From Prevotella sp. (lineage in GTDB: Bacteria > Bacteroidota > Bacteroidia > Bacteroidales > Bacteroidaceae): a stretch of DNA of 64,000 nucleotides. The translations under genes were made by a program, and so were the position numbers. Below are positions 27,583-43,032 of this stretch, piece by piece. Position 1 is the stretch's first letter, and each line of letters begins with the position of its first letter. The stretch lies in assembly GCA_017651265.1 (NCBI GenBank), contig JAGCDO010000033.1, forward strand, positions 1-64,000, written 5' to 3'. The notes under the pieces are model-generated. The model had not been told where the DNA came from and searched no databases. It saw only the letters and a list, made by a program, of their open reading frames with translations.

Positions 27583-27714
27583 AGACCCACCCCCACCCCT
27601 CCCTGTGAGGGAGGGGAGTAAATGCATTATCAATAAGAACAAAAATGGAAGAGAATAAAGGAACAAAAGGAGTATCTGCTCCCCTCTCTCACAGGGAGGG
27701 GCAAGGGGTTGGTC
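27583..27714. repeat. GC-rich inverted repeat pair carrying the start codon of the acyl-CoA ligase
   Basis: Left copy 27583-27619, right copy about 27678-27714, inverted to each other. Each copy is itself a hairpin: CCCCTCCCT-GTG-AGGGAGGGG at 27596-27616, and CCCCTCTCT-CAC-AGGGAGGGG at 27681-27701. The ~58 bp between them holds the ligase ATG (27645). The right copy is translated as ligase residues 12-24. Confidence 0.75.
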
Positions 27715-29402
27715 TCTTGAATAGATTTTTAAAGCAGACCAAGTTTACTTCTGTAGAAGATTACAATAAGAACCTGGAGTTCATCATCCCCGAGAACTTT
27801 AACTTCGCCTATGACGTGATGGACGCATGGGCAGCCGAGGCACCTGAAAAGTTGGCCATCCTGTGGACGAACGATCAGGGAGAGGAATTACGTACTACCT
27901 TCGGACAGCTGAAGGAGCAGACGGACCAGGCCGCGAGCTACCTGCAATCATTGGGTATCGGAAAGAACGACCCGGTGATGCTTATCTTGAAGCGCCGCTA
28001 CGAATGGTGGGTGGTCATGCTGGCCCTGCATAAGCTGGGTGCAGTGGTGATTCCTGCCACCCACATGCTCACCAAGCACGATATTGTTTACCGTAATACC
28101 CGCGCTAGCATCAAGGGTATCATCTGTGTGGATGATGCATATGTGATGAGTCAGGTGGAAGCAGCCATGCCTGAGAGTCCTACGGTTAAGGTGCTCATCA
28201 AGGTAGAGGAAGCTAATGATACTAGTGTTTCTAGTAGTACTAGTAATACTAGCTTATGGCACTCCTGGCAGAACGAGTGGCTGCAGGCGCCGAAGTTTGT
28301 CAAGCCTGCCTTTGTCAACACCAACGACGACACCATGCTGATGTACTTCACCAGTGGCACCAGCGGTGAACCGAAGATGGTGGCTCACGACTATCTCTAT
28401 GCCATGGGGCATCTCTCAACGGGTGTGTTCTGGCATAACCTCCACGAGGGTTCCCTTCATCTCACCGTGGCCGACACGGGTTGGGGAAAGGCTGTGTGGG
28501 GTAAGTTCTACGGACAGTGGTTTGCCGGCGCAACGGTCTTTGTGTTCGACCATGAGAAGTTCAATGCTGACACATTGCTTCGCCAGATAGAGAAATATAA
28601 GGTGACGAGCTTCTGTGCTCCGCCAACCATCTACCGTTTCATGATTCGCGAGGATCTGAGCAAGTACGACCTCTCTTCGTTGGAGTATTGTACCACTGCC
28701 GGTGAGGCATTGAACCCTGCTGTGTTCGACAAGTTCAAGGAGAAGACTGGTATCCAGATGATGGAAGGCTTCGGACAGACGGAGACCACCATGACACTGG
28801 GAACCTTCCCTTGGATGACTCCCAAGCCAGGTTCCATGGGAATCCCCAACGCACAATACGACATCGACCTGCTGCGTGCCGACGGTACACCATGTGAAGA
28901 TGGTGAGAAGGGCGAGATCGTAGTACGAGTAGGCGACCGTAAGCCTATCGGTTTGTTCAAATATTACTATCGTGATGAAGAGCTGACCCGTGAGGCATGG
29001 CACGATGGCATCTACCATACAGGTGATATGGCTTGGCGCGATGAGGACGGCTACTACTGGTTCGAGGGTCGTATCGATGATGTGATCAAGTCGTCTGGCT
29101 ACCGCATCGGTCCGTTCGAGGTGGAGAGTGCGCTGATGACTCACCCTGCTGTCGTGGAGTGCGCCATTACCGGTGTACCCGATGACATTCGTGGTATGGT
29201 GGTAAAAGCGACTGTCGTACTCGGTAAGGAGTGGAAGGACAAGGCTGGCGAAGACCTGATCAAGGAACTCCAGCAGCACGTCAAGAAAGAAACAGCTCCT
29301 TATAAGTATCCGCGTATCATCGAGTTCGTCGATGAACTGCCAAAGACCATCAGTGGAAAAATCCGCCGCGTAGAGATTCGCAATAAGGACAGCAAGAAAT
29401 AA
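27645..29402 (+). CDS. AMP-forming acyl-CoA synthetase (acetyl/medium-chain acyl-CoA ligase type)
   Basis: 585 residues. Adenylate-forming enzyme: the P-loop YFTSGTSGEPK is at 234-244, the adenylation core contains MMEGFGQTETT, and the C-terminal lid has SSGYRIGPFEVES and the catalytic lysine in PKTISGKIRR. It activates a carboxylic acid with ATP and CoA; the exact acid is unknown. Two oddities: residues 1-25 come largely from a GC-rich inverted repeat that supplies the start codon, and residues 192-203 (DTSVSSSTSNTS) are encoded by a 9-bp CTAG array in a surface segment before the P-loop. Otherwise intact and co-directional with the XRE-cupin and YraN genes. Confidence 0.9.
   Translation: MEENKGTKGVSAPLSHREGQGVGLLNRFLKQTKFTSVEDYNKNLEFIIPENFNFAYDVMDAWAAEAPEKLAILWTNDQGEELRTTFGQLKEQTDQAASYLQSLGIGKNDPVMLILKRRYEWWVVMLALHKLGAVVIPATHMLTKHDIVYRNTRASIKGIICVDDAYVMSQVEAAMPESPTVKVLIKVEEANDTSVSSSTSNTSLWHSWQNEWLQAPKFVKPAFVNTNDDTMLMYFTSGTSGEPKMVAHDYLYAMGHLSTGVFWHNLHEGSLHLTVADTGWGKAVWGKFYGQWFAGATVFVFDHEKFNADTLLRQIEKYKVTSFCAPPTIYRFMIREDLSKYDLSSLEYCTTAGEALNPAVFDKFKEKTGIQMMEGFGQTETTMTLGTFPWMTPKPGSMGIPNAQYDIDLLRADGTPCEDGEKGEIVVRVGDRKPIGLFKYYYRDEELTREAWHDGIYHTGDMAWRDEDGYYWFEGRIDDVIKSSGYRIGPFEVESALMTHPAVVECAITGVPDDIRGMVVKATVVLGKEWKDKAGEDLIKELQQHVKKETAPYKYPRIIEFVDELPKTISGKIRRVEIRNKDSKK
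28218..28253 (+). repeat. CTAG 9-bp array in the acyl-CoA ligase gene
   Basis: Four 9-bp units (GATACTAGT, GTTTCTAGT, AGTACTAGT, AATACTAGC). This is the only array read in the ACT-AGT frame (Thr-Ser); the other six are read CTA-GTx. Confidence 0.85.
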
Positions 29403-29762
29403 ATGGCTGCGCACAACGAACTCGGCAGGTGGGGAGAAGACCTGGCTGCTGCCTTTCTCGAAGAAAAGGGTTATGCCATCGTTGAACGCGACTGGAAGTC
29501 TGGTCATCATGATCTCGACATCGTGGCAAAGGATGGCAGTACACTGGTCATCGTAGAAGTAAAGACCCGCCGCAATCGTTTGTATGGTAATCCAGAGGAA
29601 GCCATCGACTACAAAAAACGTCGGAGTCTGCTGTCGGCCATTAACCACTACACCAAGTCGCATCGTATCTACAGCAATGTCCGCTTCGACATCATCAGTA
29701 TTGTAGGCAACATGGGCGAAAAGCCCGAAATAGACCACATCATAGATGTAGCATTATTATGA
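29403..29762 (+). CDS. YraN/UPF0102-family endonuclease-like protein
   Basis: 119 residues, normal for the family. The PD-(D/E)XK-like core is visible: Glu in GRWGEDLAAAFLEEKGY, Asp in HHDLDIVAKDG, and Glu-x-Lys in VIVEVKTRR. The role is not firmly known; a nucleic-acid function is assumed from the fold. It starts directly after the ligase stop codon and overlaps proB by 4 bp (ATGA), so it is translated within the arg/pro operon. Confidence 0.88.
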   Translation: MAAHNELGRWGEDLAAAFLEEKGYAIVERDWKSGHHDLDIVAKDGSTLVIVEVKTRRNRLYGNPEEAIDYKKRRSLLSAINHYTKSHRIYSNVRFDIISIVGNMGEKPEIDHIIDVALL

Positions 29763-30529
29763 AAAGAATCGTTATAAAGGTAGGCTCGAACGTCCTGACA
29801 CGTCCTGACGGGAAATTGGATGTGACACGCATGTCGGCACTGGTTGACCAGATTGCTTGGCTGCGTAAGCATGATATCGAGGTCATCCTCGTATCATCTG
29901 GAGCCATGGCTTCCGGACGTGGAGAACTGAAGGTTGACCACTCGTTGGATTCCGTGGAGCAGCGACAGCTGTTCTCTGCCGTCGGACAGGTGAAGCTCGT
30001 AGGACTCTATTATGATTTGTTCCGCGAGTTTGGTATTCATGTAGGACAGGTACTGACTATGAAAGAGAACTTCCAGCCCGGAGAGCAATACCGTAACCAG
30101 CGGGCTTGTATGACCGTTATGCTCGAGAATGACGTGCTGCCCATCGTGAACGAGAACGACACGGTGAGTGTTACTGAGCTGATGTTCACCGATAACGATG
30201 AACTGTCTGGTCTCATTGCGCAGATGATGAAAGCCGATACGTTGATCCTGCTTTCTAACATCGATGGTATCTTCACCACTCATCCCGATGACCCGAATGC
30301 CGAACTGATTAATGAAGTGGCTCCCGGTCGCGACCTCTCAGAATACATCCAACCCGAGAAGAGTGCCTTCGGTCGTGGTGGCATGCACTCAAAGTACACC
30401 ACTGCCAGCAAGGTATCACAGTCGGGCATCCGCGTCATCATAGCCAATGGAGAGCGCGAGAATATCCTTATCGATTTGATGGAACGTAAAGACGAAACCC
30501 CACATACAGAGTTTACCCCATGCAACTGA
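29759..30529 (+). CDS. proB: Glutamate 5-kinase, kinase domain only
   Basis: First step of proline synthesis: ATP-dependent phosphorylation of glutamate. 256 residues, comprising only the amino-acid-kinase domain ([11 protein letters not shown] at the N-terminus, [16 protein letters not shown], and the FGRGGMHSK motif). The C-terminal PUA domain found in many ProB proteins is absent. The ATG overlaps the YraN stop by 4 bp, and the 3' end overlaps proA by 10 bp, so the short form is not an artefact of a missed downstream exon or gap. Confidence 0.94.
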
Positions 30530-31761
30530 AAGAAACATTCGAACGAGTGAAGTGCGCCAGTAAGAGTCTGGCCCTGCTGAGCGACGAGCAGCGCAACGAG
30601 ATTCTTCAAGCCGTTGCCGATGCTATTATCAATAATAAGGTGAGAATCCTGGAGGCTAATGCACAGGATCTGGCTAAGATGGAGAAGAGTAATCCGCTGT
30701 ACGACCGTCTGCAGCTGACTGACAGTCGATTGGAGGGCATCGCCGCCGACATGCGTAATGTGGCTACCCTACCCTCTCCCCTCGGTCATATCACCAAGCA
30801 GAAGACGTTGCCCAATGGACTTCGCCTTTGTCGTGTGAGTGTTCCCTTCGGTGTGATCGGTATGATCTACGAGGCACGTCCCAACGTTACCTTTGATGTC
30901 TTCTCTCTCTGTTTCAAGAGTGGTAATGCCTGTGTACTGAAAGGTGGTAAGGATGCCGACTGTTCGAACCGCGAGGAGGTGGCATTGATTCATGAGATCT
31001 TGGAGAAATATGGTGTCAATCCTGATGTTGTCGCCCTGCTGCCGGCCACACATGAAGCTACTGGCGAGATGCTGAATGCGGTAGGCTATGTCGATCTGTG
31101 CATCCCCCGTGGCGGTCGTAAGCTCATCGACTTCGTTCGTGACACTGCCCGCATCCCCGTTATCGAGACTGGTGCTGGCGTGGTGAACACCTATTTCGAC
31201 AAGGAGGGTGATCTGGAAATGGGCAAGGCTATCATCAATAATGCCAAGACCCGCAGGGTGAGCGTATGCAATGCACTGGATTGTTTGCTGGTACATCTAG
31301 AAAGACTAGTAGATCTAGCAGAACTAGTAAAGCCGATGGCAGAGAAGAATGTCATCATCTATGCCGATGAGAAGGCCTATGCTGCCCTCGAAGGTAAATA
31401 TCCTTTGTTGGAGCATGCTACCAACGAGAGCTTCGGAACGGAGTTCATGGATTATAAACTGGCCATCAAGACCGTTTCTTCTCTCGAAGAGGCACTTGCT
31501 CATATCGATGAGAATGGCTCCGGTCACAGCGAGGCCATCATCACCATGAACGAGACAACAGCTCGTAAGTTCCAGGCACATGTAGATGCTGCTTGCGTTT
31601 ATTGGAATGCACCGACTTCCTTTACCGACGGTGCTCAGTTCGGTCTTGGCGCCGAGATTGGCATCTCTACCCAGAAACTCGGTCCTCGAGGACCGATGGC
31701 CTTGGAAGAGATCACCACCTATAAATGGCTTATCGAGGGTGAAGGACAAATAAGGGGATAG
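30520..31761 (+). CDS. proA: Gamma-glutamyl phosphate reductase
   Basis: Second step of proline synthesis: NADPH reduction of glutamyl-5-phosphate. 413 residues, normal length. The aldehyde-dehydrogenase-like fold has its catalytic Cys250 in [11 protein letters not shown], and the C-terminal [20 protein letters not shown] is the ProA signature. Residues 259-270, in a helix just after the active site, are encoded by a 9-bp CTAG array but keep a plausible Leu/Val-rich helical sequence; the total length is unchanged. Overlaps proB by 10 bp. Confidence 0.95.
31294..31329 (+). repeat. CTAG 9-bp array in proA
   Basis: Four 9-bp units (CATCTAGAA, AGACTAGTA, GATCTAGCA, GAACTAGTA), read in frame as [12 protein letters not shown]. 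Confidence 0.8.
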
Positions 31762-31781
31762 TGAATTGTTTGAGTAATCAT

Positions 31782-31816
31782 AAAGTTCAAAGATCAAAGT
31801 TCAAAGTTCAAAGATT
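31782..31816 (+). repeat. Heptad array ending exactly at the argF' start codon
   Basis: Five 7-bp units (AAAGTTC, AAAGATC, AAAGTTC, AAAGTTC, AAAGATT) with the ATG of argF' as the very next three bases. Confidence 0.8.
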
Positions 31817-32779: not shown

Positions 32780-32803
32780 CCCCTTGTGAAGCATCTCAAA
32801 AAG

Positions 32804-32848
32804 AAAGATAACACATTTTTTGTCTTTCGCAGAAAATGTGTTATCTTT
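32804..32848. other. 16-bp perfect inverted repeat after argF', containing a promoter-like box
   Basis: AAAGATAACACATTTT (32804-32819) and its exact inverted copy (32833-32848), with a 13-nt loop. It could be the argF' terminator, though there is no T-run after it. TATCTTTG (32842-32849) at its right arm matches a -7 box. Confidence 0.6.
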
Positions 32849-32875
32849 GGCTTTAGCGAAGACACTTGCACTCAA

Positions 32876-32912
32876 CAAAACAAAAAGAAAAATCCTTTTC
32901 CTTTTTGTTTTG
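32876..32912. other. 12-bp perfect inverted repeat overlapping the -33 region
   Basis: CAAAACAAAAAG (32876-32887) and CTTTTTGTTTTG (32901-32912), 13-nt loop. The right arm contains the TTTG proposed as the -33 box of the next gene. Confidence 0.6.
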
Positions 32913-32934
32913 TGTTCGTTTATCCGTATCTTTG
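32904..32934 (+). promoter_or_regulatory. Promoter of membrane/lipoprotein module 1, nearly leaderless
   Basis: TTTG (32904-32907), 19 bp, TATCTTTG (32927-32934): a full match to the Bacteroidota consensus. The ATG at 32939 is only 4 bp after the -7 box, so a transcript starting at the usual distance would be leaderless or nearly so. Confidence 0.6.
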
Positions 32935-32938
32935 CATT

Positions 32939-34351
32939 ATGAAAGCTGCTATCAAGAAATATGTCCCTTTAATTCTGGTCATCGTATGGGGAATAGCGTG
33001 CTGGGGGTTCTTCCAGTTCTGCTACTCCTATCATTTCTATTATCAAGAACAGAACCAGATCTTCCTGCTTACTTGGGAGCATATCAGTCAGTATTTAGCA
33101 CCTTGTGGATGGCTTGCCAAGCTCATTGGCGACTTCCTCACCCAGTTCTATTATTATCTTTATGTAGGACCGGTTATTCTGACTGGCTGCTTACTTTTGT
33201 TGGGGCACTTCCTGCAACGCCTGTTGTATCGATGGGGCGTAGGCAAATGGATTGCCGTCCTTGTGGCCATGATCGTCATGACACTCTTTGCTGTCTTCTG
33301 TTTCCACCACAATTACCGACTGAGTAACATCATTTCTGCCGCAGGACTGGCAGGAACGTTCCTCTTGGCAACCTTGTTGTGGAAGAAACGGAACTGGCTC
33401 AGAATACTCCTGGCGTTCGTTATCGCCATCGCAGGCTGCTATCATTTCGGTAAGCCAGAGATGGGAAAGCTACAACAACCGAACTTCTTCGTAGAAAAAC
33501 AACTCGCTGTTGACAACGAGTATCATTTCAGGAATTACGATAAGGTCATCAGTATGGTGGAAAACGATCCGCATCCCACCCAGGAGATGAAGTTCTTCTA
33601 CAATCTGGTGCGTGCCCAACAAGGACAGCTTCCCGACTATCTGATGCGATTCGACAACAACGAACTCGGCACCTTCTACAAGATCGGTCCTGAAACTCCG
33701 CTGTTCACCATCAAGAGTATGAACGAGTTGTACTGGGTATTAGGCGATATGACCTTCACGGAACGGGCCGCCATGATGGCCAACGTGTTCTCTCCTGAGA
33801 ACAGGAACGTACGAATGATCAGACGATTGGCAGAATGCAATATGGTAAGTCAGGACACGATAGCCGCCAACAAGTACCTGCGAATCCTTGACAAGACACT
33901 CGTCTATCGGTCATGGGCCGGAAACATCCGCAAACATGGTCAGACCATCTACAAGGAGAAGATGCAGCTGGTAAACCACCACGACACCATCACGGTTTCT
34001 GACAATGCCCATTTCCTGATGATGCAGTTACTTGACACAAACCCAGACAACATCATTGCATTGGATTATATCCTCTGCAGTAACCTGTTGCTGAAAGACA
34101 TTGAAAACTTCAAGCGCGATTACGACCGCTATTGCATTGACACAGGGAAACCCCGTTTGAAGACATTGTATCAAGAAGCTTTGTGCATCTGGCTGGCTGG
34201 TACCAATGCCCCGCAGGAAGAATGGGAGAAATACATCCAACGGGCAGATGTTTTCCAACAGTTCCAGCAGTATAACGAACAGCGTGGTCATCCCCGCTTC
34301 AAAGGCACCTACTGGTATTACTTTGACAAATCAAAAGCGCCGAAGGTATGA
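32939..34351 (+). CDS. Polytopic membrane protein, DUF6057-like (module 1)
   Basis: 470 residues from the ATG at 32939 (MKAAIKKYV); the frame is open further upstream but that part crosses the promoter. About six membrane segments fill the first ~215 residues, with the conserved YYQEQNQIFLLTWEHI after the first. The C-terminal ~255 residues are soluble, helical and TPR-like (GDMTFTERAAMMANVF, ECNMVSQDTIAANKYL). Paralogous to the proteins at 37403-39157 and 41340-42839, which share the same architecture; this copy has no CTAG array. The stop overlaps the next gene by 4 bp. I recall the family as DUF6057; its function is unknown. Confidence 0.8.
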   Translation: MKAAIKKYVPLILVIVWGIACWGFFQFCYSYHFYYQEQNQIFLLTWEHISQYLAPCGWLAKLIGDFLTQFYYYLYVGPVILTGCLLLLGHFLQRLLYRWGVGKWIAVLVAMIVMTLFAVFCFHHNYRLSNIISAAGLAGTFLLATLLWKKRNWLRILLAFVIAIAGCYHFGKPEMGKLQQPNFFVEKQLAVDNEYHFRNYDKVISMVENDPHPTQEMKFFYNLVRAQQGQLPDYLMRFDNNELGTFYKIGPETPLFTIKSMNELYWVLGDMTFTERAAMMANVFSPENRNVRMIRRLAECNMVSQDTIAANKYLRILDKTLVYRSWAGNIRKHGQTIYKEKMQLVNHHDTITVSDNAHFLMMQLLDTNPDNIIALDYILCSNLLLKDIENFKRDYDRYCIDTGKPRLKTLYQEALCIWLAGTNAPQEEWEKYIQRADVFQQFQQYNEQRGHPRFKGTYWYYFDKSKAPKV

Positions 34352-35847
34352 AAAGGAAGCATATACTCAATAAACTAGTAATACTAGAAAAACTAGTTAC
34401 ACTAGATATACTAGTGGCACTGGTTGTTTTAGCAACAATAGCATCTTGCACCCCCACACCAAGGGATGTGCAGAAGAGCGATGAGTTGCCGCCTATCTAC
34501 CCTGATTACTGTGATGTAACCATCCCAGAGAACATTGCTCCGCTGAACTTCTTGCTTCGGGCAGATTGCGAAGCCGTTCAAGTGCAGGCAGGAGATATCA
34601 CCATCCATGCCAGAGGTAATGAGGTGACGTTTGACATGGACGACTGGAAAACACTGATAGAGCAATTTTCGGGCAAGACCATCACCATTTCCGTTACGGC
34701 ACTTATCAATAGTAGGTGGATACAGTACAAACCATTCACCTGGATGGTAACGAAAGACAAGATTGATCCTTTCCTTACCTACCGTTTGATTGAGCCTGAT
34801 TACGAGGTGTGGCATCAGGTGGAGCTTCATGAACGGTGTGTGGAGAACTATGATGAACGGAGCATATCTTCATATAAGAATGTAGGCGACCGCTGTATGA
34901 ACTGTCATGTCTATCACAACCAAGACCCGGAAAGATCGATGCTCTATGTCCGCGGTGAGGGTGGAGGTGCTTTCCTGAACGAAGGAGGAAGACTGCAGAA
35001 GCTTAACATCAAGACCGATGGCATGGTTTCAGGAAGCGTCTATTACGGTTTCAGTCGTACAGGACGATACATCACGTTTTCCTCCAACGTCATCATTCCT
35101 GCCTTCCATGCAAAGCCCGATAAACGGTTAGAGGTATATGACAGTAAGTCGGATGTCTATGTAGCCGACCTACAGACGAACACCATCATTCCCTCTCCCC
35201 TACTCTGCGACAGCATGAAGTTCGAGACCTTCCCCACCTTCTCCCCCGACGGCAAGTATATCTATTATTGCGTTGCCGACAACGTAAGTCTGCCAACAGA
35301 GATCAGTAAGTTGCAATATGTCCTATGCCGTATTCCCTTTGATGAGAAAAGCGGTACGATCGGTACAGAAGTAGATACCTTGAGAATTGCAGCTACGCCA
35401 CAAGGTACAAAGAGTTCCGTATGCCATCCACGCATTAGTCCTGACGGCAGGTTCCTGCTCTATACCGTGGCCGACTACGGTACTTTCCCCATCTGGCATC
35501 CTGAGGCCGACCTGCAGATGATGGATCTGCAGAAAGGAACTATTGATACTCTTAGTATTGTGAACAGCAACAAGAGCGACACCTATCATTCCTGGAGCAG
35601 CAACAGTCGTTGGTTCGTGTTTGCCTCCAAACGTGATGACGGATTATATGGCAAACCCTATTTCTGCTATGTCGATAAGAACGGCAAGGCACACAAGCCC
35701 TTCTGCCTTCCCCAGAAGCATCCAACGTTCTACGATAATAACCTGAAGTCGTTCAACGCCCCGGAATTAGGTAAGGGAAAGGTCCCCTTTGATGCGAACG
35801 ATGTAGCGAAAGCTATGAAGCAGGAGGCAATACCTTTTAAATACTAA
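34348..35847 (+). CDS. Lipoprotein with one CxxCH haem-type motif and TolB/PD40-like propeller (module 1)
   Basis: 499 residues. The signal peptide (KLVILEKLVTLDILV..., lipobox TIASC, Cys34) is encoded by a CTAG array and contains unusual Glu and Asp. An N-terminal beta domain (about 45-165) is followed by CMNCH at 183-187, a cytochrome-c-type haem site, and then by a beta-propeller of PD40/TolB repeats (FSRTGRYITFSS, FPTFSPDGKYIYYC, HPRISPDGRFLLYT, WSSNSRWFVFASKRDDG). The residues after Cys34 (TPTPRD) lack the acidic surface-export signal, so a periplasmic location is likely, which fits haem attachment. Translationally coupled (ATGA) to the membrane protein before it. Confidence 0.8.
   Translation: MKRKHILNKLVILEKLVTLDILVALVVLATIASCTPTPRDVQKSDELPPIYPDYCDVTIPENIAPLNFLLRADCEAVQVQAGDITIHARGNEVTFDMDDWKTLIEQFSGKTITISVTALINSRWIQYKPFTWMVTKDKIDPFLTYRLIEPDYEVWHQVELHERCVENYDERSISSYKNVGDRCMNCHVYHNQDPERSMLYVRGEGGGAFLNEGGRLQKLNIKTDGMVSGSVYYGFSRTGRYITFSSNVIIPAFHAKPDKRLEVYDSKSDVYVADLQTNTIIPSPLLCDSMKFETFPTFSPDGKYIYYCVADNVSLPTEISKLQYVLCRIPFDEKSGTIGTEVDTLRIAATPQGTKSSVCHPRISPDGRFLLYTVADYGTFPIWHPEADLQMMDLQKGTIDTLSIVNSNKSDTYHSWSSNSRWFVFASKRDDGLYGKPYFCYVDKNGKAHKPFCLPQKHPTFYDNNLKSFNAPELGKGKVPFDANDVAKAMKQEAIPFKY
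34372..34425 (+). repeat. CTAG 9-bp array encoding the signal peptide of lipoprotein 1
   Basis: Six 9-bp units from AAACTAGTA to GCACTGGTT; the last has lost the CTAG core. Read as Leu-Val-rich triplets KLV-ILE-KLV-TLD-ILV-ALV. Confidence 0.9.
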
Positions 35848-35853
35848 AACAAC

Positions 35854-35875
35854 AATGGCGGCCATGGCCGCCATT
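35854..35875. terminator. Perfect 22-bp palindrome shared by two convergent modules
   Basis: Half-site AATGGCGGCCA followed by its exact complement. It fills most of the 29 bp between the stop codons of lipoproteins 1 and 2 and would serve as a bidirectional terminator. T-runs are weak. Confidence 0.65.
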
Positions 35876-35876
35876 A

Positions 35877-37406
35877 TCATTTCACTTTTGTCTCTACACG
35901 CTGATCGGAAATGATCTCCCGTCCAGCTTTGTAAGCATCGAAATCCACCTTCGTCTTCGTGAAGTCGGGCGTATTGAAGGAGTAAATGCTCTCCTCGTAA
36001 TATGCTTTGGGATGCCGCTGTGGCAAGAGGAATGGCTTTGAGAAGTGACCTTGGTCGTCAACACTGGTGAGATACAGACGAGAATAATAGCCATCATCTC
36101 TCCTACTGGTAAATACAATCCAATGCGAGTTCACGTTCCAGTTATGGTAGCTGTCGGCTTTCGGACTATTGATCTCTTTCAGTTCGCGAGACTCCCCAGT
36201 CTGTAGGTCGAGTAACCACTGCTCACTCTCTTCATGCCAGATGGAGAAATAACCATAGTCCATCAGTGTGAAAAGGATATACTTCCCATCGTAAGAAGGT
36301 CGTGGCCATGTCAGACTCTTCCCCATCGCCACAGCATTGAAGACCGTATCCACCTTCTCGCCGAACTTCCCCGTCTCAGGATCAAAACTGATCTTACAAA
36401 GGTTATACTTCTCATCCTTATAATGAGCAGGATACTCCTGCTGTTTGCAAGTCATATAATATAAGGTGCGCCCATCAGAAGAGAACACTGGTGAGTTCTC
36501 GCTCCAGTCTTTGGTCTGCAAGAGAGAATCCGTCAGAATCTCGCGGGTAACAGGATTATATACGAACACATCCGACGAGAGATCAAACACCTCGATACGC
36601 TCATTGGGAGCTACATGGAAAGCCTGACGAGTCTGGTTCGTTGAGAACGCGCAATACTTCCCGCTTGGATGCCAGTACGGATAGACCATCGAGCCTCCTA
36701 ACTGTTCGTTGGATGCTTTCAGCCACTCACGCTGACCGTCTATCTGGAACATCGTGGCCCCATGACCGCCACGAACATGGAAGACGAACTGCTGAGGATC
36801 GGTTTGATGGGAAGAATGACAGTTGACGCACATGCCTGGTACCTGAGTATTCTCGATGATAGGATACTCATTGAAAGTGGATAAGTCACGCTGATAGAGA
36901 CCCATCTTACTGAACACCTCATAGCTTGGAGCGATGCGGCGGTAGGTGAGTCCCCACTCATCGAGCGCATACTGACTAACCGTAACCACGAAATCCTTGT
37001 ATTGTGTCCATTGTCCATCCTTCAATGTGCAAACCGTAAAGGTAAGATTACCTCCCTTGTTCTGTTGCGTCAGCTCATGCCAATCATTGATATCGAAAGC
37101 AGCCTCATCACCATGGACATGCAGTTCACCGCCTTTGCTGCCCTTCACCACCACATCCATGCCATCAATATCCTCATCCACACTATTGAAGTTCAGCGGA
37201 GCAATCTCTGCCGGAATCGTCACACCGATATAATCAGGATAGATCTTTGGCAGCTGGTTCACCTTGGTAGGGTTCGTTACCTGGCCAGTGCAACCGGTAA
37301 GAAAGGGAATCACTAGTAATCCTAGTATCACTAGTTTAGCTAGTACTACTAGGTTTTCTAGTACTACTAGTTTCTCTGGTTTCAGTATATGCCGCATCCT
37401 TTTCAT
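35877..37406 (-). CDS. Lipoprotein with CxxCH motif and TolB/PD40-like propeller (module 2)
   Basis: 509 residues. Long signal peptide (lipobox FLTGC, Cys39), most of it encoded by a CTAG array (EKLVVLENLVVLAKLVILG). After the beta domain comes CVNCH at 193-197, followed by a propeller with FSSDGRTLYYMT, RPSYDGKYILFTL and WNVNSHWIVFTSRRDDG. Much closer to lipoprotein 3 than to lipoprotein 1: both share PKIYPDYIGVTIP or a near match, NFNxVDEDIDGMDVxVKG and LDEWGLTYRRI or a near match. The post-lipobox residues TGQVTN are not acidic, suggesting a periplasmic site. Overlaps the upstream membrane protein gene by 4 bp. Confidence 0.8.
   Translation of the reverse strand: MKRMRHILKPEKLVVLENLVVLAKLVILGLLVIPFLTGCTGQVTNPTKVNQLPKIYPDYIGVTIPAEIAPLNFNSVDEDIDGMDVVVKGSKGGELHVHGDEAAFDINDWHELTQQNKGGNLTFTVCTLKDGQWTQYKDFVVTVSQYALDEWGLTYRRIAPSYEVFSKMGLYQRDLSTFNEYPIIENTQVPGMCVNCHSSHQTDPQQFVFHVRGGHGATMFQIDGQREWLKASNEQLGGSMVYPYWHPSGKYCAFSTNQTRQAFHVAPNERIEVFDLSSDVFVYNPVTREILTDSLLQTKDWSENSPVFSSDGRTLYYMTCKQQEYPAHYKDEKYNLCKISFDPETGKFGEKVDTVFNAVAMGKSLTWPRPSYDGKYILFTLMDYGYFSIWHEESEQWLLDLQTGESRELKEINSPKADSYHNWNVNSHWIVFTSRRDDGYYSRLYLTSVDDQGHFSKPFLLPQRHPKAYYEESIYSFNTPDFTKTKVDFDAYKAGREIISDQRVETKVK
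37311..37382 (-). repeat. CTAG 9-bp array encoding the signal peptide of lipoprotein 2
   Basis: Eight 9-bp units, seven with a CTAG core and the last decayed to CTGG. Longest array in the window. Confidence 0.9.
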
Positions 37407-39157
37407 TTTTCATTCGTTAAATAATACCACACTGTATTCTTGAACCTTGCCAGTTCAGGCGAGTTCTTGTCATTGGAGTAGATTCTGCTGAATTCATTCA
37501 TCTGCTGTAGGATCATATCGCTGATCAAACCCCGTGGCGGTTGCTGTCGTTGCTGCATGAAAGCAAAGGCCAAGGCCTCCTGACAGCTGCGCGGACGATA
37601 CAGCGCCCTTTCCTGTACCACCTGCACATACGACATGAAACGAGGGATATCCTTATCGAGCAGCGGCATCAGCATCAGATACTGCATAGCCATCTGATTC
37701 TGCGGGTTATGAACAAACAACTGTCCACAAATCTTATCCAGTTCCGTTTCGCTGAATAAGAAGTCCTCTTGCAGTCGATACTGGCGGAGTTGTCCATAGA
37801 GCGGATGTCCATTGATGACTTTCTCATCCCCCAGCATGGTCATCATGCGCTTAGCCCACGGTCGGTAGAACACGGTTTTCTCCAGCATCTTCAAGTATTT
37901 CTCAGCCACTTTGTACTGACCATTTATCATATTCGTTTCCGCCAACCGCTTCACTACACGGGCACTCTTGTTGTAATTAGGAATAGCCTCCATGGCCTCA
38001 AAAGCAAACCGCTGGGCTGTGTTCACCAGTCCTAAATGGAAATAGATCTCACCTGTGAGCTGTGCCGTGGCGAAGTTCCGCTCAAACTTCGGGAGCAAAC
38101 CCTCTGAACCACGCTGGTAGAAATCAAACGCCCGCTCTCCCAACTGGTTCGTCATACCCAGCGCCAGGTTCGTAGCACTCACGCTCATCGGCAGGTCGGG
38201 CATCTGTTTCTCCGCCTTGGCGATGATGGCGTTCCACTGATTGGTACGTACCAGATAGTCGTATTCTATTAGTTCGTATTTCTTGGTATCATAGCCCCGA
38301 GGGATGATCAGTACAGCAGCAACCGCCAACACAACAAGTTCTGCCATATAAACCCATTTCTTCTGCTTCTCTGCAACGGCATGGAATTTCCTGCAGAGCC
38401 AAACAAGCAGGATTATAACAACGGGGATCGCCATCAGCACATAGGGCAGCACCTCAGGGATACGGTAGTAACTAATGCCCAACACCACTCTTGACATGGG
38501 GAAAGGCAGATAGTGTGCGCTCAGCAAGATCAGTGCCAACGAATAGATAACTGCCACTGCCGCCACTGTTAAAGGCAGCATCAATGCGGCCACCAGCAGC
38601 ACCATCGGTCCGATGAGCCAATAGAGCAGTGGTATCAGGAGCAGCAAAGTGCCTAGTTTTACTAGATTGCCTAGTTTTTCTAGTTTACCTAGTACAACTA
38701 GTTCCAGTCGTCTAAGCAACAATGCCACTGCCAGCGCCATCACCAATGCCACCACATACGTCAACATCACACTCTCATCGCCCATGGCATACCATAGCAT
38801 CAAGGCTGGGAGGAAGCTCAAGGGATAGAGTTGATAGTTGATAGTTGACAGTTGATAGTTGACAGTTGTCATCAGTCGCCAAGTGAGGCGTTGGATGAGC
38901 ATAAAAAGTACGGCAAGGATCAAGGCACCGAAGGTAACACCATTATAGAACTGCACCAGGAACTCGGCGATATACCTGGCTAAGCCCCCTGGTTCTGACA
39001 AACGCTCACAGAAATAATCACCGTCGAACAGGAACAGTTGCAGCTGCTCCTGATAAGTAAGCGCAAAGGGATAGCGGTATCTCCAAAACAGGAACACCGC
39101 AATGCCGAACACCACTGTCAGCACCCATCCACCATATTTAAATCTATCGACTTTCAA
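37403..39157 (-). CDS. Polytopic membrane protein, DUF6057-like (module 2)
   Basis: 584 residues, the longest of the three paralogs. Starts MKVDRFKYGGWVLTVVFGI with a membrane helix, then YPFALTYQEQLQLFLFDGDY and the conserved PGGLARYIAEFLVQFY. About nine membrane segments reach residue ~280, then a soluble TPR-like C-terminus (LAETNMINGQYKVAEKYLK). Two repeat-derived segments lie within the membrane part: a heptad array (TTVNYQLSTINYQL), absent from the paralog at 41340, and a CTAG array (ELVVLGKLEKLGNLVKLG) at the same position as the array in that paralog. Function unknown. Coupled to lipoprotein 2 by an ATGA overlap. Confidence 0.8.
   Translation of the reverse strand: MKVDRFKYGGWVLTVVFGIAVFLFWRYRYPFALTYQEQLQLFLFDGDYFCERLSEPGGLARYIAEFLVQFYNGVTFGALILAVLFMLIQRLTWRLMTTVNYQLSTINYQLYPLSFLPALMLWYAMGDESVMLTYVVALVMALAVALLLRRLELVVLGKLEKLGNLVKLGTLLLLIPLLYWLIGPMVLLVAALMLPLTVAAVAVIYSLALILLSAHYLPFPMSRVVLGISYYRIPEVLPYVLMAIPVVIILLVWLCRKFHAVAEKQKKWVYMAELVVLAVAAVLIIPRGYDTKKYELIEYDYLVRTNQWNAIIAKAEKQMPDLPMSVSATNLALGMTNQLGERAFDFYQRGSEGLLPKFERNFATAQLTGEIYFHLGLVNTAQRFAFEAMEAIPNYNKSARVVKRLAETNMINGQYKVAEKYLKMLEKTVFYRPWAKRMMTMLGDEKVINGHPLYGQLRQYRLQEDFLFSETELDKICGQLFVHNPQNQMAMQYLMLMPLLDKDIPRFMSYVQVVQERALYRPRSCQEALAFAFMQQRQQPPRGLISDMILQQMNEFSRIYSNDKNSPELARFKNTVWYYLTNEK
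38649..38702 (-). repeat. CTAG 9-bp array in membrane protein 2
   Basis: Six 9-bp units, each with CTAG, between two predicted membrane segments. The array in membrane protein 3 (42385-42420) occupies the homologous place, just before the shared PLLYWLIG motif. Confidence 0.88.
38829..38870 (-). repeat. In-frame heptad array in membrane protein 2
   Basis: Six 7-bp units (AGTTGAT, AGTTGAT, AGTTGAC, AGTTGAT, AGTTGAC, AGTTGTC), 42 bp or 14 codons in all. Paralog 3 has only PPKWWLLSVLP here, so this is about a 10-residue insertion. Confidence 0.8.
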
Positions 39158-39171
39158 TTCTCAATAATCTA

Positions 39172-39840
39172 TTATTCCTTTATCTCTTCATTCGTATCAG
39201 CATTGAACGTGACAACACGTCCGTCAGGATACTTCCGCTTATAGGTCAAGGGGAAACGCACCTTCAGAAAATCATGGAGCACACCCTTCTTCATGTTCTT
39301 CGCCAACTGACGAGTATAGTTCTTATAGACCAGATGGAAGCTGTCGGCCCGCTGCTCAATATACTTCGCCTGCACTGCATCACCCTTTTGTTTGAGTTCT
39401 TCCACATTCCTTCGCATCTTTGCCACTTGCAGGTTATGCATCTCAGTGCGCATCTTCCACTGCTGCAGCGAGTCGTTCTGTGGTGTGCCGCCTGCGCTAC
39501 TCACACTATCGATCACCACCTTCACCTCTCCTGGTTCACCCACCACCAGTATAGGCTGCAAGCCCATACGATAGTGATAGTCCATCAGGATCTGATACAT
39601 CTGCATGGTATCTCTGCTGAAGTCTTTTTCGAAGGAAAACATCCCATTGGTTATTTCCATGGAATCCACATACTCTGCGGTCTTAGGACCGTTCATGGGT
39701 ACAAGGAAGATACGCTTGCCCTCGTACTGTTCACCTTTCACCACACCATTGATGTAGCACTTCCCGTTGTTAGCCGACTGACAGCTGAACATCATCATTG
39801 CAGCTGCCACTGTCATAAAGCATAATAGAATCTTTCTCAT
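39172..39840 (-). CDS. DUF4369-type periplasmic lipoprotein without thioredoxin domain
   Basis: 222 residues. Lipobox MMFSC (Cys20), followed by QSANNG with no acidic export signal. Residues about 27-130 (CYINGVVKGEQYEGKRIFLV, VVGEPGEVKVVID) match the DUF4369 domain that normally precedes a thioredoxin-like domain in Bacteroidota thiol-disulfide proteins. Here the thioredoxin part is missing; instead there is a helical, charged segment (about 135-200) and a basic end. It lies between modules 3 and 2 on the same strand, 3 bp after lipoprotein 3 and 14 bp before membrane protein 2, so it is part of that operon. A link to haem or thiol chemistry is only an inference. Confidence 0.75.
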   Translation of the reverse strand: MRKILLCFMTVAAAMMMFSCQSANNGKCYINGVVKGEQYEGKRIFLVPMNGPKTAEYVDSMEITNGMFSFEKDFSRDTMQMYQILMDYHYRMGLQPILVVGEPGEVKVVIDSVSSAGGTPQNDSLQQWKMRTEMHNLQVAKMRRNVEELKQKGDAVQAKYIEQRADSFHLVYKNYTRQLAKNMKKGVLHDFLKVRFPLTYKRKYPDGRVVTFNADTNEEIKE

Positions 39841-39843
39841 ATA

Positions 39844-41343
39844 TTATTCATTTTGACTTCTCAATTTAACTTGTTCCCGTTTGTTATCAAACACCTGTCG
39901 GTATGCTTCATGGGCATCCACATCCACCTTCGTCTTGGTGAAGTCGGGCACATTATACGCATCCATCATCTCAGAATAGAACTTACGTGGATTCTGCTGA
40001 GGCAACAGGAATGGTTTCGATACCTTTCCCTGGTCATCAATGCATGCCAGATAGAGTTTTGTGTACATCCCGTCTTCACGTTTACTGCAGAAAACGAACC
40101 ACTTACTATTCTCGCTCCAGTTATGGAAGCACTCACTCTGATTACTGTTCAGTTCCTTCAGTTCCCGACTCTCACCTGTCTGCAGATCCATCAGCCACAG
40201 GTCGGCATCATTCTGACTAACCGGGAAATTTCCACGACTGCTCACACAATACATCAACCAACGACCGTCGTACGAAGGACGTGCCAGCACATAGCTCTTA
40301 TCGGTAGCAGGACCATTCAGCAATGTATCCACCATCTCACCAAACGTTCCTGTCTTTGCATCAAAGCCAATACGGCACAACGAGCATTTCACCTTCTCAT
40401 ATTCCGCCGGCACCCTACAAGGTTTCGAGGTACTATAATAGAGCCATTTACCGTCGGCCGAGAAAGCAGGGAAGATCTCCAGATCGTCCGTCTGCAGCAG
40501 CGGAGAGAGAATCAGTTCGTTTGTCCGGGTATCAAGAACCTCCACATTACTGAACTTATGATACACCTCAATACGCTGTCCTGTTCCAGTGAAGAAGCTC
40601 TGATGCACGGAATTGACAGCCAGAGCCACATAATCGCCATCGGGGTGCCAATAACTATAAGAGCCAGCCGCTTTGGTGGAGTCGGTCTTCGTTTCCACCC
40701 ACGTCTGCTTCCCATCCTTCTGTATCATGGTTCCTCCACCCTCGCCACGCATCTGCAAGGTGATACGGTTGGGGTTGGTGCGGTTGGCTGTATGACAGTT
40801 GAAGCAACGACCAGGAACAACCGTTTCCGTCAGGATAGCATACTCGTTGAATGTATGGATATCCCGCTGGTAGATACCGATATCGCCACCTACCTCATAG
40901 CCAGGCTTGATGCGACGATAGGTCAGACCCCAATCATCCAGCGGATACTGACTAACATGAATCACGAAATCCTGATACTGTTTCCACTGCCCTTCTTTCT
41001 TCACACAAACGGTAACGGTCAGTTCGCCCCCGATGTTCTGTTCGGTAAGCGTATGCCAGTCGGCTATATCGAAATCAGCCCAAGCGCCATTTACATGCAG
41101 TTCCCCTCCTTTACTACCTTTTACCAATACATCCATTCCATCGATGTCTTCATCAACCATATTGAAGTTCAGCGGAGCGATATCAGCAGGGATGGTCACG
41201 CCGATATAATCAGGGTAGATTTGCGGCTGGGCATTTACCATAGAAACGTTCTCCACCTTGTTAGCGCATCCTAGGAGAACTAGTTGTACTAGTAGTACTA
41301 GTGGAACTAGTGATACTAGTTTAGTATAAACCCTTCTCTTCAT
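39844..41343 (-). CDS. Lipoprotein with CxxCH motif and TolB/PD40-like propeller (module 3)
   Basis: 499 residues from the ATG at 41343, chosen because it begins the signal peptide (MKRRVYTKLVSLVPLVLLV, lipobox VLLGC, Cys26) and overlaps the membrane protein stop by 4 bp; the frame is open 26 codons further up but those are not signal-like. The signal peptide is encoded by a CTAG array. Domain order as in lipoprotein 2: beta domain, CFNCH at 180-184, propeller (FSADGKWLYYST, RPSYDGRWLMYCV, WSENSKWFVFCSKREDG). Closest relative is lipoprotein 2. Residues after Cys26 (ANKVEN) argue for a periplasmic lipoprotein. Confidence 0.8.
   Translation of the reverse strand: MKRRVYTKLVSLVPLVLLVQLVLLGCANKVENVSMVNAQPQIYPDYIGVTIPADIAPLNFNMVDEDIDGMDVLVKGSKGGELHVNGAWADFDIADWHTLTEQNIGGELTVTVCVKKEGQWKQYQDFVIHVSQYPLDDWGLTYRRIKPGYEVGGDIGIYQRDIHTFNEYAILTETVVPGRCFNCHTANRTNPNRITLQMRGEGGGTMIQKDGKQTWVETKTDSTKAAGSYSYWHPDGDYVALAVNSVHQSFFTGTGQRIEVYHKFSNVEVLDTRTNELILSPLLQTDDLEIFPAFSADGKWLYYSTSKPCRVPAEYEKVKCSLCRIGFDAKTGTFGEMVDTLLNGPATDKSYVLARPSYDGRWLMYCVSSRGNFPVSQNDADLWLMDLQTGESRELKELNSNQSECFHNWSENSKWFVFCSKREDGMYTKLYLACIDDQGKVSKPFLLPQQNPRKFYSEMMDAYNVPDFTKTKVDVDAHEAYRQVFDNKREQVKLRSQNE
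41268..41321 (-). repeat. CTAG 9-bp array encoding the signal peptide of lipoprotein 3
   Basis: Six 9-bp units, all with a CTAG core, ending just before the lipobox cysteine codon. Confidence 0.9.
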
Positions 41344-42839
41344 TCTCCCCTCCTTTCCATCATTCGTTGCACATACTTGGCAAAGGGTGAGTCGGGCACA
41401 CGGCCCTGGGCCTGAATGCAACGCATTACATCCTGATAGCCCAAAGGCATCTCACGGTAGCCCCCATACTGCTGAGCCAGTCCTAAATACTGTTGGAAGC
41501 CCTGCAGGTTTCCCTTGAGGAGCATCTGCGCCAAGAAGTAGTCGAGCGCCATCTTGTTCTCGTTGTTGTTCATGAACAGCAAGCCGAACATCTTGTCTAT
41601 TTCGTCATAGCTATAGAGGAAGTTCTCCTTATATCGCAGTTGGCGCAGCTTACCATAGACAGGATGTTTATCCATCTTCTCCTTATCTTTCATCAACGCC
41701 TCAGCCTCGTTGGCCCAACTACGATAGAAGAGCGATTTCTTGAGCAAGGCGAGTTGTTTCGCAGCTGTCTTTTGATGCCCGTTCACCATCATGCACTCGG
41801 CAATTCGCTTTGTGCAACGTCCGCTTTTCCTACCGTTCAGGATCGACTCCTGCGTATCGAACATATAGCGTTGAGCCGAGTTCACCATACCTAAATGCCA
41901 GAACGCCTCAGCCGAAGGAAGCATCGAGGTCAGGTCGCGAATACGCGGCATAATCAGTGCGTCCTCGCCACTCTGGTAGAAGTCGAACATCCGTCCAGCC
42001 AGCTGACGCTTTTTCGACAAGGCCAGATTTACACATACAGAGCTGAACGGTGTCTTCACCTGGTATTGCTGAGCTCTTTTGACAATCTCATCCCAGCGCT
42101 CGTTTCGCACCAGATAGTCCTGACGGATCAACTCATACATCTCCTTGTCGTAGCCTTTCAACTGCGGATAGTGTAGCGGAATGCGATAATAGTTCAGTCC
42201 TGACAGCACCTGTTGCAAAGGCCATTGCGGTAACAGCCAGGCGTATGCTATCAGTTGAACCGCAACGAACCAACCAGCCAGCCATAGATGTTTCCAGCCT
42301 AACTGGCAGACGCGTACCAATATATATATCCACACCGCTAGACCAATAAGCCAATAAAGCAACGGAACCATGAGCAGTTCTATCATAACTAGTATGACTA
42401 GTCTATCTAGTTTTACTAGTTTCCCCATGATCCACGCCGCGAATAATGCCAAGACCACAGCCACGGGGAATGACAGCAACACGTTGATATCACCCATCAG
42501 CCACCATAACAGGATAACAGGCAACACGCTCAACAGCCACCATTTTGGGGGAAGTAATCGAACTGTCAACCGCTGCAGAACGACAAACAGCAAAGCCAGC
42601 AGCAATGCCCCCAGCCATTCCACATAATAGAATTGCACGATAAACTCGCCCAGCCAGTCGGCCAAGCCACCGGGAACGCTCATCCTTTCCAGGAAATAAT
42701 CGCCCGTCCACAAGAACAGTTGATACTGCTCCTGATACGACAAGGCATGGGGGTAAAAGACATACCAGAACAAGAATACGCCGATGCCCACCAGCACCGA
42801 CAACACCCAGTTTCCATATCTCCTTAATTCCTTTCCCAT
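41340..42839 (-). CDS. Polytopic membrane protein, DUF6057-like (module 3)
   Basis: 499 residues. MGKELRRYGNWVLSVLVGI, YPHALSYQEQYQLFLWTGDY and PGGLADWLGEFIVQFYY at the N-terminus match paralog 2 closely. About seven membrane segments to residue ~215, then a soluble helical C-terminus (MVNGHQKTAAKQLALLKKSL). A CTAG array encodes KLVKLDRLVILV between two membrane segments. First gene of a five-gene minus-strand operon: membrane protein 3, lipoprotein 3, DUF4369 lipoprotein, membrane protein 2, lipoprotein 2. The promoter lies directly upstream. Function unknown. Confidence 0.8.
   Translation of the reverse strand: MGKELRRYGNWVLSVLVGIGVFLFWYVFYPHALSYQEQYQLFLWTGDYFLERMSVPGGLADWLGEFIVQFYYVEWLGALLLALLFVVLQRLTVRLLPPKWWLLSVLPVILLWWLMGDINVLLSFPVAVVLALFAAWIMGKLVKLDRLVILVMIELLMVPLLYWLIGLAVWIYILVRVCQLGWKHLWLAGWFVAVQLIAYAWLLPQWPLQQVLSGLNYYRIPLHYPQLKGYDKEMYELIRQDYLVRNERWDEIVKRAQQYQVKTPFSSVCVNLALSKKRQLAGRMFDFYQSGEDALIMPRIRDLTSMLPSAEAFWHLGMVNSAQRYMFDTQESILNGRKSGRCTKRIAECMMVNGHQKTAAKQLALLKKSLFYRSWANEAEALMKDKEKMDKHPVYGKLRQLRYKENFLYSYDEIDKMFGLLFMNNNENKMALDYFLAQMLLKGNLQGFQQYLGLAQQYGGYREMPLGYQDVMRCIQAQGRVPDSPFAKYVQRMMERRGE
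42385..42420 (-). repeat. CTAG 9-bp array in membrane protein 3
   Basis: Four 9-bp units (ATAACTAGT, ATGACTAGT, CTATCTAGT, TTTACTAGT, plus-strand reading), homologous in place to the array at 38649-38702. Confidence 0.88.
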
Positions 42840-42879: not shown

Positions 42880-42935
42880 GGTTCAAAGGGTAACTTTAAG
42901 TGCTTTCTTTGTAAATCTGAGCAGGATTCCAATTA

Positions 42936-43016
42936 TTCCCAACGTGGGAACTTTTTATTCCCAACGTGGGAACTTTTTATTCCCAAGGTGGGAACAATTC
43001 ATTCCCAACGTGGGAA
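42936..43016. repeat. Four palindromes TTCCCAnnnTGGGAA at 22-bp period
   Basis: Palindromes start at 42936, 42958, 42980 and 43002, exactly 22 bp apart (TTCCCAACGTGGGAA three times, one with AGG in the middle). Spacers are 7 bp, two of them identical (CTTTTTA). Same family as 24909-24967, with CGT instead of CAT in the core. Confidence 0.88.
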
Positions 43017-43032
43017 CATTGTGAAACACAAA

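What the first reader, a model, noticed from the sequence alone, without database searches (positions are those of the whole stretch)
28218..42420. Seven in-frame 9-bp CTAG arrays confined to one 14-kb stretch of coding sequence
Arrays of 4-8 units with the form nnnCTAGnn at strict 9-bp period occur at 28218, 31294, 34372, 37311, 38649, 41268 and 42385. All lie inside genes, on either strand, and all keep the frame. Flanking bases differ between units and arrays, so they are not simple copies. CTAG is among the most avoided tetranucleotides in many bacteria, and CTA is a little-used Leu codon in the neighbouring genes, so the clustering is striking. None is seen in the SusCD loci or the left arg group. 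I know of no described element like this; it could be a coding-compatible repeat with its own spreading mechanism, or a binding platform for a protein.
Basis: partly seen in the sequence, partly recalled or inferred. Interest (0 to 1): 0.85.

Follow-up and report, generated by a model that had tools for sequence, protein, structure and literature searches.

The report
Palindrome arrays paired with a protein
Rumen and gut Prevotella carry dozens of short DNA arrays, repeating CTAG every 9 bases inside and between genes, that appear to be the scattered partner sites of a small unstudied protein family in which each protein type has its own array motif.

Summary
The seven CTAG arrays are real and far beyond chance: 36 of the window's 43 CTAGs sit in them at exactly 9 bp. 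They are not confined to this stretch. The genome holds about 40 such arrays on at least 20 contigs, and 213 of 398 genus genomes hold a run of four or more units. Between sister species the core diverges about 1%, flanks 3.8%, linkers 11%; units come and go whole. In proA the array arose by substitution, without length change.

The key find is a partner. Genes of the four-helix-bundle 'suffix' family (NCBIfam TIGR04258) are flanked by 9- or 10-bp tandem arrays (26 of 29 top-scoring loci; 0 of 43 control genes). The motif differs between genes (CTAG, CCTAGG, GTCSGAC, CTATAG and others) and follows the protein tree; for the two other motifs tested, arrays of that motif recur in the genomes whose gene carries it. 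Shorter relatives (Pfam PF05635) often have 7- or 8-bp arrays, inverted across the gene.

Best reading: a protein-array two-component system. Binding and the means of spread are inferred. Many genomes have arrays without the gene, or the reverse. I found no description in the open-access papers searched.

The parts
28222..28252 (.). CTAG array, 4 units, in an AMP-binding (acyl-CoA ligase-like, name by eye) ORF 27645-29402, reading frame nCT-AG (TSx repeat)
   Evidence: the array falls in a variable loop where G118 also has an array and G090 has a different 9-bp repeat (CTCNGANNA)
31297..31327 (.). CTAG array, 4 units, in proA-like ORF 30520-31761, frame CTA-G
   Evidence: no gap in the array segment against 20 of 20 orthologs
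34375..34414 (.). CTAG array, 5 units, in the N-terminal signal-like segment of ORF 34348-35847
   Evidence: conserved in G118
37313..37370 (.). CTAG array, 7 units, in the N-terminal signal-like segment of ORF 35877-37406 (minus strand)
   Evidence: G118 lacks exactly 18 bp (2 units)
38653..38701 (.). CTAG array, 6 units, in a hydrophobic segment of ORF 37403-39157 (minus strand)
41271..41319 (.). CTAG array, 6 units, in the N-terminal signal-like segment of ORF 39844-41421 (minus strand)
42389..42419 (.). CTAG array, 4 units, in a hydrophobic segment of ORF 41340-42839 (minus strand)
   Evidence: one unit is CTGG in G118
31782..31816 (.). heptamer array AAAGTTC at the border of the proA-like and argF-like ORFs; same unit as arrays near a short PF05635 gene on contig C61 of this genome
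   Evidence: L497 arrays at 303-509 (about 0.65 kb from the PF05635 hit) and 1587-1614 (about 0.1 kb)
38827..38868 (.). heptamer array AACTATC/AGTTGAY inside ORF 37403-39157; same unit as the arrays on both sides of a short PF05635 gene on contig C8 of this genome
   Evidence: L499 arrays at 1104-1131 and 1498-1532, either side of the hit; (L483)

Best explanation
The CTAG arrays are the dispersed partner sites of a two-component system. One component is a four-helix-bundle 'suffix' protein (TIGR04258; distant kin of Pfam PF05635, which a review likens to Avd of diversity-generating retroelements). The other is a tandem array of that protein's own short, mostly palindromic motif at a fixed 9- or 10-bp pitch. 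In the window's genome the partner gene is at contig C1 5517-6263 (coordinates of that contig, outside the window), with a CTAG array on each side. Shown: the arrays, their pitch, core constraint, whole-unit turnover, in-place origin in proA, the gene-flanking arrays, the match of motif to protein clade, and, for two further motifs, the recurrence of the same motif in the genomes whose gene carries it. Inferred: that the protein, probably as a multimer, binds its array cooperatively, one core per subunit or dimer; that binding keeps the core while linkers drift; and that arrays grow by unit duplication and reach new sites by ectopic copying or by selection at sites that tolerate the change, such as signal peptides, membrane segments, loops, Leu-x-x-Leu helices and gene borders.
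For: Reality and reach: 213 of 398 genus genomes with a 4-unit match; 3-unit match in 19 of 36 genus genomes and 0 of 24 genomes of other families of the order. In 118 loci chosen for CTAG arrays, CTAG/9 gives 140 arrays of 4 or more units with differing linkers and the next palindromic tetramer (AATT/7) 12; in the window plus stretches not chosen for arrays 8 and 7, seven of the 8 being the window's. DNA-level constraint, G000 against G118, 28 shared arrays: core 6/515, linkers 55/505, flanks 612/16196 sites different; reverse comparison, 26 arrays: 4/500, 57/495, 577/15065 (8 of 40 G000 arrays had no fetched ortholog and 4 no array at the aligned place). Partner: 6 of 6 members of one gene cluster lie 0-36 bp from arrays and are TIGR04258. 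Of the 30 best family hits 29 could be judged: 26 have a 9- or 10-bp array on at least one side, 16 on both; control genes with intergenic gaps 0 of 43 at 9/10 bp (6 of 43 at any period, the arrays being 7-bp). All genus loci from the family search 59 of 69 (40 of the loci picked by me, preferring genomes with CTAG arrays); order loci 13 of 28. Cognate motif: GTCSGAC/9 arrays in 4 of 4 genomes with a GTCSGAC-flanked gene and 2 of 61 others; CCTAGG/10 in 11 of 11 and 6 of 54 (labels; Fisher p 2e-5 and 1e-8). Motif labels on the protein tree: 13 changes against a shuffled mean of 44.8, 0 of 200 as low. Short PF05635 genes: arrays on at least one side in 18 of 28 loci, both in 12, and in 12 of those 12 the two sides match better as inverted than as direct repeats. 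Two of six window heptamer arrays match flanks of such genes of this genome.
Against: Arrays and gene are not strictly coupled. Among 398 genomes: both 141, arrays only 72, gene only 81, neither 104 (odds ratio 2.5, p 8e-6). Nearly complete genomes G010, G290 and G362 hold 53, 17 and 23 four-unit matches and no TIGR04258 gene; in 18 of the 72 such genomes a search with the G000 protein found nothing convincing, the best being a 33-residue piece in G249. G010 and G362 also lack any PF05635 hit. G118 has 69 matches and lacks the gene; there it lacks the 0.95-kb array-gene-array stretch, yet its core sites are constrained too. In G361 and G329 every match lies at the gene, so scattering is not universal. 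In the CCTAGG test two of the 11 positives (G197, G086) are own-flank matches only, for three (G364, G204, G029) the places were not listed, and the labels were written down after the counts were seen; L379 of G151, labelled CTAG/9, is ambiguous. Not every flank motif is palindromic (CTCCCA, heptamers). In the acyl-CoA-ligase-like loop the array goes with a net insertion, not substitution. No binding was measured; fold comparison was unavailable; PDB searches gave only 2QEE at E 1 and 2GSC at E 0.064 and 7BQN at E 0.14.
Confidence: 0.6

Rival explanations
1. Selfish spread: gene plus flanking arrays is (or was) a mobile element and the dispersed arrays are its non-autonomous remnants, as REPINs are of RAYT elements; the host gains nothing.
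For: Gene flanked on both sides by arrays (16 of 29), and inverted flanks in 12 of 12 doubly flanked short PF05635 loci; sporadic presence, 0-7 genes per genome; stretch present in G000 and G203 and absent in G118; arrays found without the gene.
Against: The proA arrays arose by substitution with no inserted bases, and an array in a valS-like ORF (name by eye) differs between G000 and G118 without length change, which insertion of an element does not give. G118 may have lost rather than never had the gene: G203 is slightly the more distant of the three. No transposase or nuclease family was hit by six proteins in NCBIfam and Pfam.
Confidence: 0.3
2. Host-function platform: the protein organises or regulates the chromosome through arrays kept by ordinary selection.
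For: Core constrained and linkers free over coding and non-coding arrays pooled; one motif per protein clade.
Against: Array number varies from 0 to 264 four-unit matches between genomes of one genus; genes and arrays occur without each other; of 66 listed places (of 74) in G010, 64 lie at 1.52-1.70 Mb of a 1.98-Mb contig, with no clear relation to skew in 20 sampled stretches.
Confidence: 0.3
3. Neutral microsatellites: replication slippage of a 9-bp unit.
For: Whole-unit gains and losses of 9, 18 and 27 bp.
Against: Units are not copies: 87 different linkers among 152. Core slower and linkers faster than flanks. In-place origin. Link to a protein family.
Confidence: 0.05
4. Protein-level repeat: selection for Leu-Val-x or Thr-Ser-x peptides.
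For: Several window arrays lie in signal-like or hydrophobic segments.
Against: Two reading frames (15 and 11 arrays) and 14 of 40 arrays outside ORFs; proA orthologs use mostly other Leu codons at the same positions.
Confidence: 0.03
5. The arrays act in RNA: the protein family, kin of proteins encoded in 23S rRNA intervening sequences, binds array transcripts or array hairpins.
For: Sub-threshold PF05635 kinship; inverted flanking heptamers could pair across the gene.
Against: CTAG cores give only 4-bp pairs, and arrays lie outside as well as inside ORFs; no RNA fold or expression test was made.
Confidence: 0.12

Closest known systems
REP / REPIN sequences and their RAYT genes (PMC3116915, passages read; PMC8049555, listing only)
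   Same: A gene flanked by short repeats of its own class, with the same repeats scattered through the genome, and repeat class going with the gene type.
   Different: RAYTs are transposase-like proteins (recalled) and REPs are extragenic palindromes used as inverted pairs; here the protein is a four-helix bundle, the repeat is a tandem array with a fixed 7-, 9- or 10-bp pitch and free linkers, and it is often inside coding sequence.
Avd of diversity-generating retroelements (PMC10053308, passages read)
   Same: That paper states that PF05635 resembles Avd and points to an alignment of structures 4DWL and 2GSC; the TIGR04258 proteins match PF05635 below cut-off.
   Different: A reverse transcriptase, template and variable repeat were not sought here; the variable sites are linkers in many loci.
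23S rRNA intervening-sequence proteins (Pfam PF05635)
   Same: Same family by profile, below cut-off; the gene lies between flanking repeats.
   Different: In G000 the gene lies between two other ORFs, not in a 23S rRNA gene; the flanks are tandem arrays.
Tandem operator boxes of MetJ and TrpR (recalled, no call)
   Same: Short palindromes at 8-bp pitch bound cooperatively; TrpR sites contain CTAG.
   Different: Those are a few promoter operators, not dozens of arrays, many within coding sequence, and the proteins are unrelated.
DNA uptake sequences (recalled, no call)
   Same: Short motifs that accumulate at sites tolerated by the proteins.
   Different: Single motifs, not phased arrays, and no flanking cognate gene.

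Membership tests
REPIN/RAYT | Cognate gene flanked by the repeat | tested here: met
   26 of 29 top-scoring TIGR04258 loci have a 9/10-bp array on at least one side, controls 0 of 43
REPIN/RAYT | Repeats dispersed in the same genome, matched to the gene's type | tested here: met
   not universal (G361 and G329: matches only at the gene)
REPIN/RAYT | Gene is a RAYT (transposase-like) protein | tested here: not met
   6 of 6 proteins hit TIGR04258 and TIGR02436 and, below cut-off, PF05635; no transposase family listed
REPIN/RAYT | Extragenic repeat built of inverted REP pairs | tested here: not met
   fixed 9-bp tandem pitch; 26 of 40 G000 arrays inside ORFs
TIGR04258 four helix bundle suffix family | Score above the curated cut-off | tested here: met
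   52.7-71.1 bits against a cut-off of 40 in 6 of 6 proteins
Pfam PF05635 (23S rRNA-intervening sequence protein) | Score above the gathering cut-off | tested here: not met
   26.9-31.5 bits against 33.8 in 6 of 6 TIGR04258 proteins; the shorter genes do exceed it
Diversity-generating retroelement | Reverse transcriptase with template and variable repeats nearby | not tested
   no search for a reverse transcriptase was made
23S rRNA intervening sequence | Gene lies within a 23S rRNA gene | tested here: not met
   in G000 the gene lies between a 794-aa and a 634-aa ORF; only this copy was looked at
Microsatellite / slippage repeat | Units are near-identical copies | tested here: not met
   87 different linkers among 152; linkers diverge faster than flanks

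The most novel reading that the evidence does not exclude
A motif-specific DNA-array writing and maintenance system: four-helix-bundle proteins, each with its own motif and pitch (7-8 bp for the short PF05635 type, 9-10 bp for the suffix type), drive tolerant chromosomal DNA, including coding sequence, into phased arrays by biased repair or ectopic copying. That would account for many of the heptamer and nonamer repeats of Bacteroidales genomes.
Probability: 0.3. Interest if true: 0.95.

Novelty: categorically new. Interest (0 to 1): 0.87.

Why it matters
It ties an abundant class of bacterial repeats to a widespread protein family of unknown function, and gives a direct test: each protein comes with its predicted DNA motif and pitch. 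If binding is confirmed, this is a new set of many distinct sequence specificities in one small fold, with a natural specificity code to read. If the protein also spreads arrays, it would be a way of editing coding DNA in place that I know no precedent for.

Tried and rejected
Chance, codon use and slippage. A terminus or origin marker: 20 sampled stretches of G010 contig C3 gave no clear skew pattern, and its arrays cluster at 1.52-1.70 Mb among ordinary-looking genes. Protein-level selection (two frames, intergenic copies). An ABC-type family near arrays was set aside: a mixture of ABC paralogs, four of 11 members from orthologous G000/G118 loci. Anti-phage models: weak matches only, E 0.003 and worse, for one of three proteins. 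One search counted partly overlapping loci (256 CTAG/9 arrays); I replaced it. The flank detector dropped 14 of 76 loci where my motif expression found no gene; one search recovered the gene in 104 of 105 loci (all but L454), L443 having been left out as a copy of the G000 gene. In one search two of 30 loci (L470, L471, TIGR04258 genes) were left out, and the ORF picked for L461 (20 aa) and L469 (63 aa) is not the gene; both were left in the counts. In one search row G127 is misplaced (frame slip in one gene), so I use that tree only to say that the proA array needs at least three changes of state on starred branches. Motif labels for one search were assigned by me from the flank printouts before the tree was built but; 70 of 104 genes had a label and 170 aa or more. 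Of six G000 PF05635 genes looked at, two have no heptamer array, and two have heptamers (AAGAAGC, AAGGAGG) not seen in the window's list. Not in print: searches listed no paper on CTAG 9-bp arrays or on TIGR04258/TIGR02436 with repeats; the library is open-access only, and one search was swamped by general papers.
Full report
OBSERVATION. The seven arrays are present at the stated places. Of 43 CTAGs in 64 kb, 36 are in them, at exactly 9 bp. Pair distances up to 45 bp in the window are 9, 18, 27, 36 and 45 only. Local shuffles give 0.0 three-unit windows against 22. All seven are in ORFs.

REACH. The window's genome has 116 three-unit matches against 3 for the reversed pattern, with arrays on at least 20 contigs. 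In 60 genomes, 19 of 36 genus genomes (the window's own included) and 0 of 24 genomes from other families of the order have a three-unit match. In 398 genus genomes, 213 have a four-unit match, with counts up to 264. The contig length of G118's C4 equals that of JAEEWT010000006.1, a Prevotella sp. MAG, isolate Tb.RUG.501, and two loci from them give the same proteins, so the window is most likely from a rumen Prevotella. In 118 loci chosen for CTAG arrays, CTAG/9 gives 140 arrays of 4 or more units with differing linkers, the next palindromic tetramer and period 12. Locus L050 holds long CTAG arrays at 8 bp.

EVOLUTION. The closest relative found, G118, has the same arrays; one lacks exactly 18 bp, others differ by 9 or 27 bp, and linkers vary. 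Of 40 G000 arrays, 8 had no fetched ortholog and 4 no array at the aligned place (two of these are poorly aligned). Over the 28 shared arrays core sites differ at 6 of 515, linkers at 55 of 505 and flanks at 612 of 16196; in the other direction (26 arrays, one more without an array) 4 of 500, 57 of 495 and 577 of 15065. In proA no ortholog (20 of 20) has a gap in the array segment; most carry a Leu-x-x-Leu helix with other Leu codons. G000 and G118 have 4 and 5 CTAGs there, G031 and G074 runs of 3, G114 four off-pitch. The tree needs at least three changes of state. A valS-like ORF (name by eye) shows four units in G000 against none in G118, no gap; which state is older was not settled. In the acyl-CoA-ligase-like loop the array goes with a net insertion, and G090 has an array of another motif, CTCNGANNA, in the same loop.

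PARTNER. ORFs of 164 loci plus the window, many of them chosen for arrays, were clustered. One cluster lay 0-36 bp from arrays in 6 of 6 loci. It is NCBIfam TIGR04258, four helix bundle suffix, with TIGR02436, and below cut-off PF05635. In G000 it stands between two CTAG arrays of 8 and 6 units. It occurs in 222 of 398 genus genomes and in 35 of 295 genomes drawn from the order (G000 among them), 0 of 14 control genomes.

GENERALISATION. The flanks of other members carry other motifs: CCTAGG at 10 bp, GTCSGAC at 9, CTATAG at 9, ATAAG-type at 9, CTCCCA at 9, TCNGA at 9 and more. With a fixed detector (5 or more columns identical over 4 consecutive units within about 300 bp), the 29 judged of the 30 best family hits give 26 with a 9/10-bp array on one side or both and 16 on both; 43 control genes with intergenic gaps give 0 at 9/10 bp and 6 at any period; all family-search genus loci 59 of 69; order loci 13 of 28. 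Random ORFs give 11 of 150 for any period.

COGNATE TEST. GTCSGAC arrays: 6 of 65 genomes, namely all four with a GTCSGAC-flanked gene (275, 154, 12 and 2 matches) and two of the 61 others, G225 and G349, each with three TIGR04258 genes of which not all flanks were seen. The two matches of G262 lie on contigs other than those of its genes. CCTAGG arrays: 17 of 65, all 11 with such a gene by the labels and 6 of 54 others; two of the 11 are own-flank matches only and three were not listed. Motif labels on the protein tree need 13 changes against a shuffled mean of 44.8; CTAG/9, CCTAGG/10, CTATAG/9 and CCTANNAC/10 fall in one supported clade, GTCSGAC and TCNGA in another.

HEPTAMERS. Short PF05635 genes carry arrays on at least one side in 18 of 28 loci (15 at 7 bp, 3 at 8 bp) and both in 12; in 12 of 12 the sides match better inverted than direct. 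In this genome AACTATC flanks one such gene on both sides, and AAAGTTC lies 0.1 and 0.65 kb from another; both units recur in the window, at 38827 and 31782. Four of the window's six heptamer arrays have no match among the six genes looked at.

AGAINST. Coupling is loose: 72 genomes have arrays without the gene and 81 the reverse. G010, G290 and G362 are nearly complete and have arrays but no TIGR04258 gene. G118 lacks the gene by absence of a 0.95-kb stretch between conserved neighbours; identities between G000, G118 and G203 slightly favour loss in G118 but do not settle it. So the gene is not needed for arrays to persist over short times, and some arrays may depend on something not found.

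MECHANISM. The model of P0004 (mean pLDDT 78.6, five sequences) is all-helical with a long C-terminal helix. That kin are multimeric and bind nucleic acid is recalled, not tested here. Cooperative binding of a multimer to a phased array is the simplest reading of a fixed pitch, constrained core and free linker. How new arrays arise without length change is open: selection at permissive sites or copying from other arrays.

KNOWN KINDS. It works like REPIN/RAYT (PMC3116915, passages) but fails two defining features. PMC10053308 (passages) reports that PF05635 resembles Avd. No paper on the present arrays or proteins was listed.

Noticed in passing
window 24906-24967 and 42933-43017: Tandem 22-bp repeats (TTGTTCCCAACATGGGAACAAT, 2.8 copies, and TTATTCCCAACGTGGGAACTTT, 3.9 copies) with a palindromic TTCCCA-TGGGAA core.
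   Followed up: no
window 62138-62204: A different 22-bp tandem repeat, 3 copies.
   Followed up: no
window 2331-4200: Four short AATT runs (3 units each) at 9 bp in two pairs.
   Followed up: no
window 32786-42839: Three paralogous pairs of a membrane-type protein and a lipoprotein-like protein with a CxNCH or CxxCH motif; six of the window's arrays lie at or near this cluster, five of them in these genes.
   Followed up: partly
L050:3972-4415: Very long CTAG arrays at 8-bp pitch (21, 19 and 14 units) upstream of a TIGR04258 gene that has 9-bp CTAG arrays downstream.
   Followed up: partly
argF-like ORF of G118 (L150), G061 (L168), G127, G022, G105: One loop of the enzyme holds different insertions in different species: an AAAGTTC heptamer array, a CCTCCC palindrome and others.
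   Followed up: no
L489 against L210: The order of the two halves around the element is inverted in G203, with the breakpoint at the left array.
   Followed up: partly
intergenic arrays, for example L034:1037, L083:806, L127:2767: Some intergenic arrays sit beside a run of C or G or of A or T (by eye, not counted).
   Followed up: no
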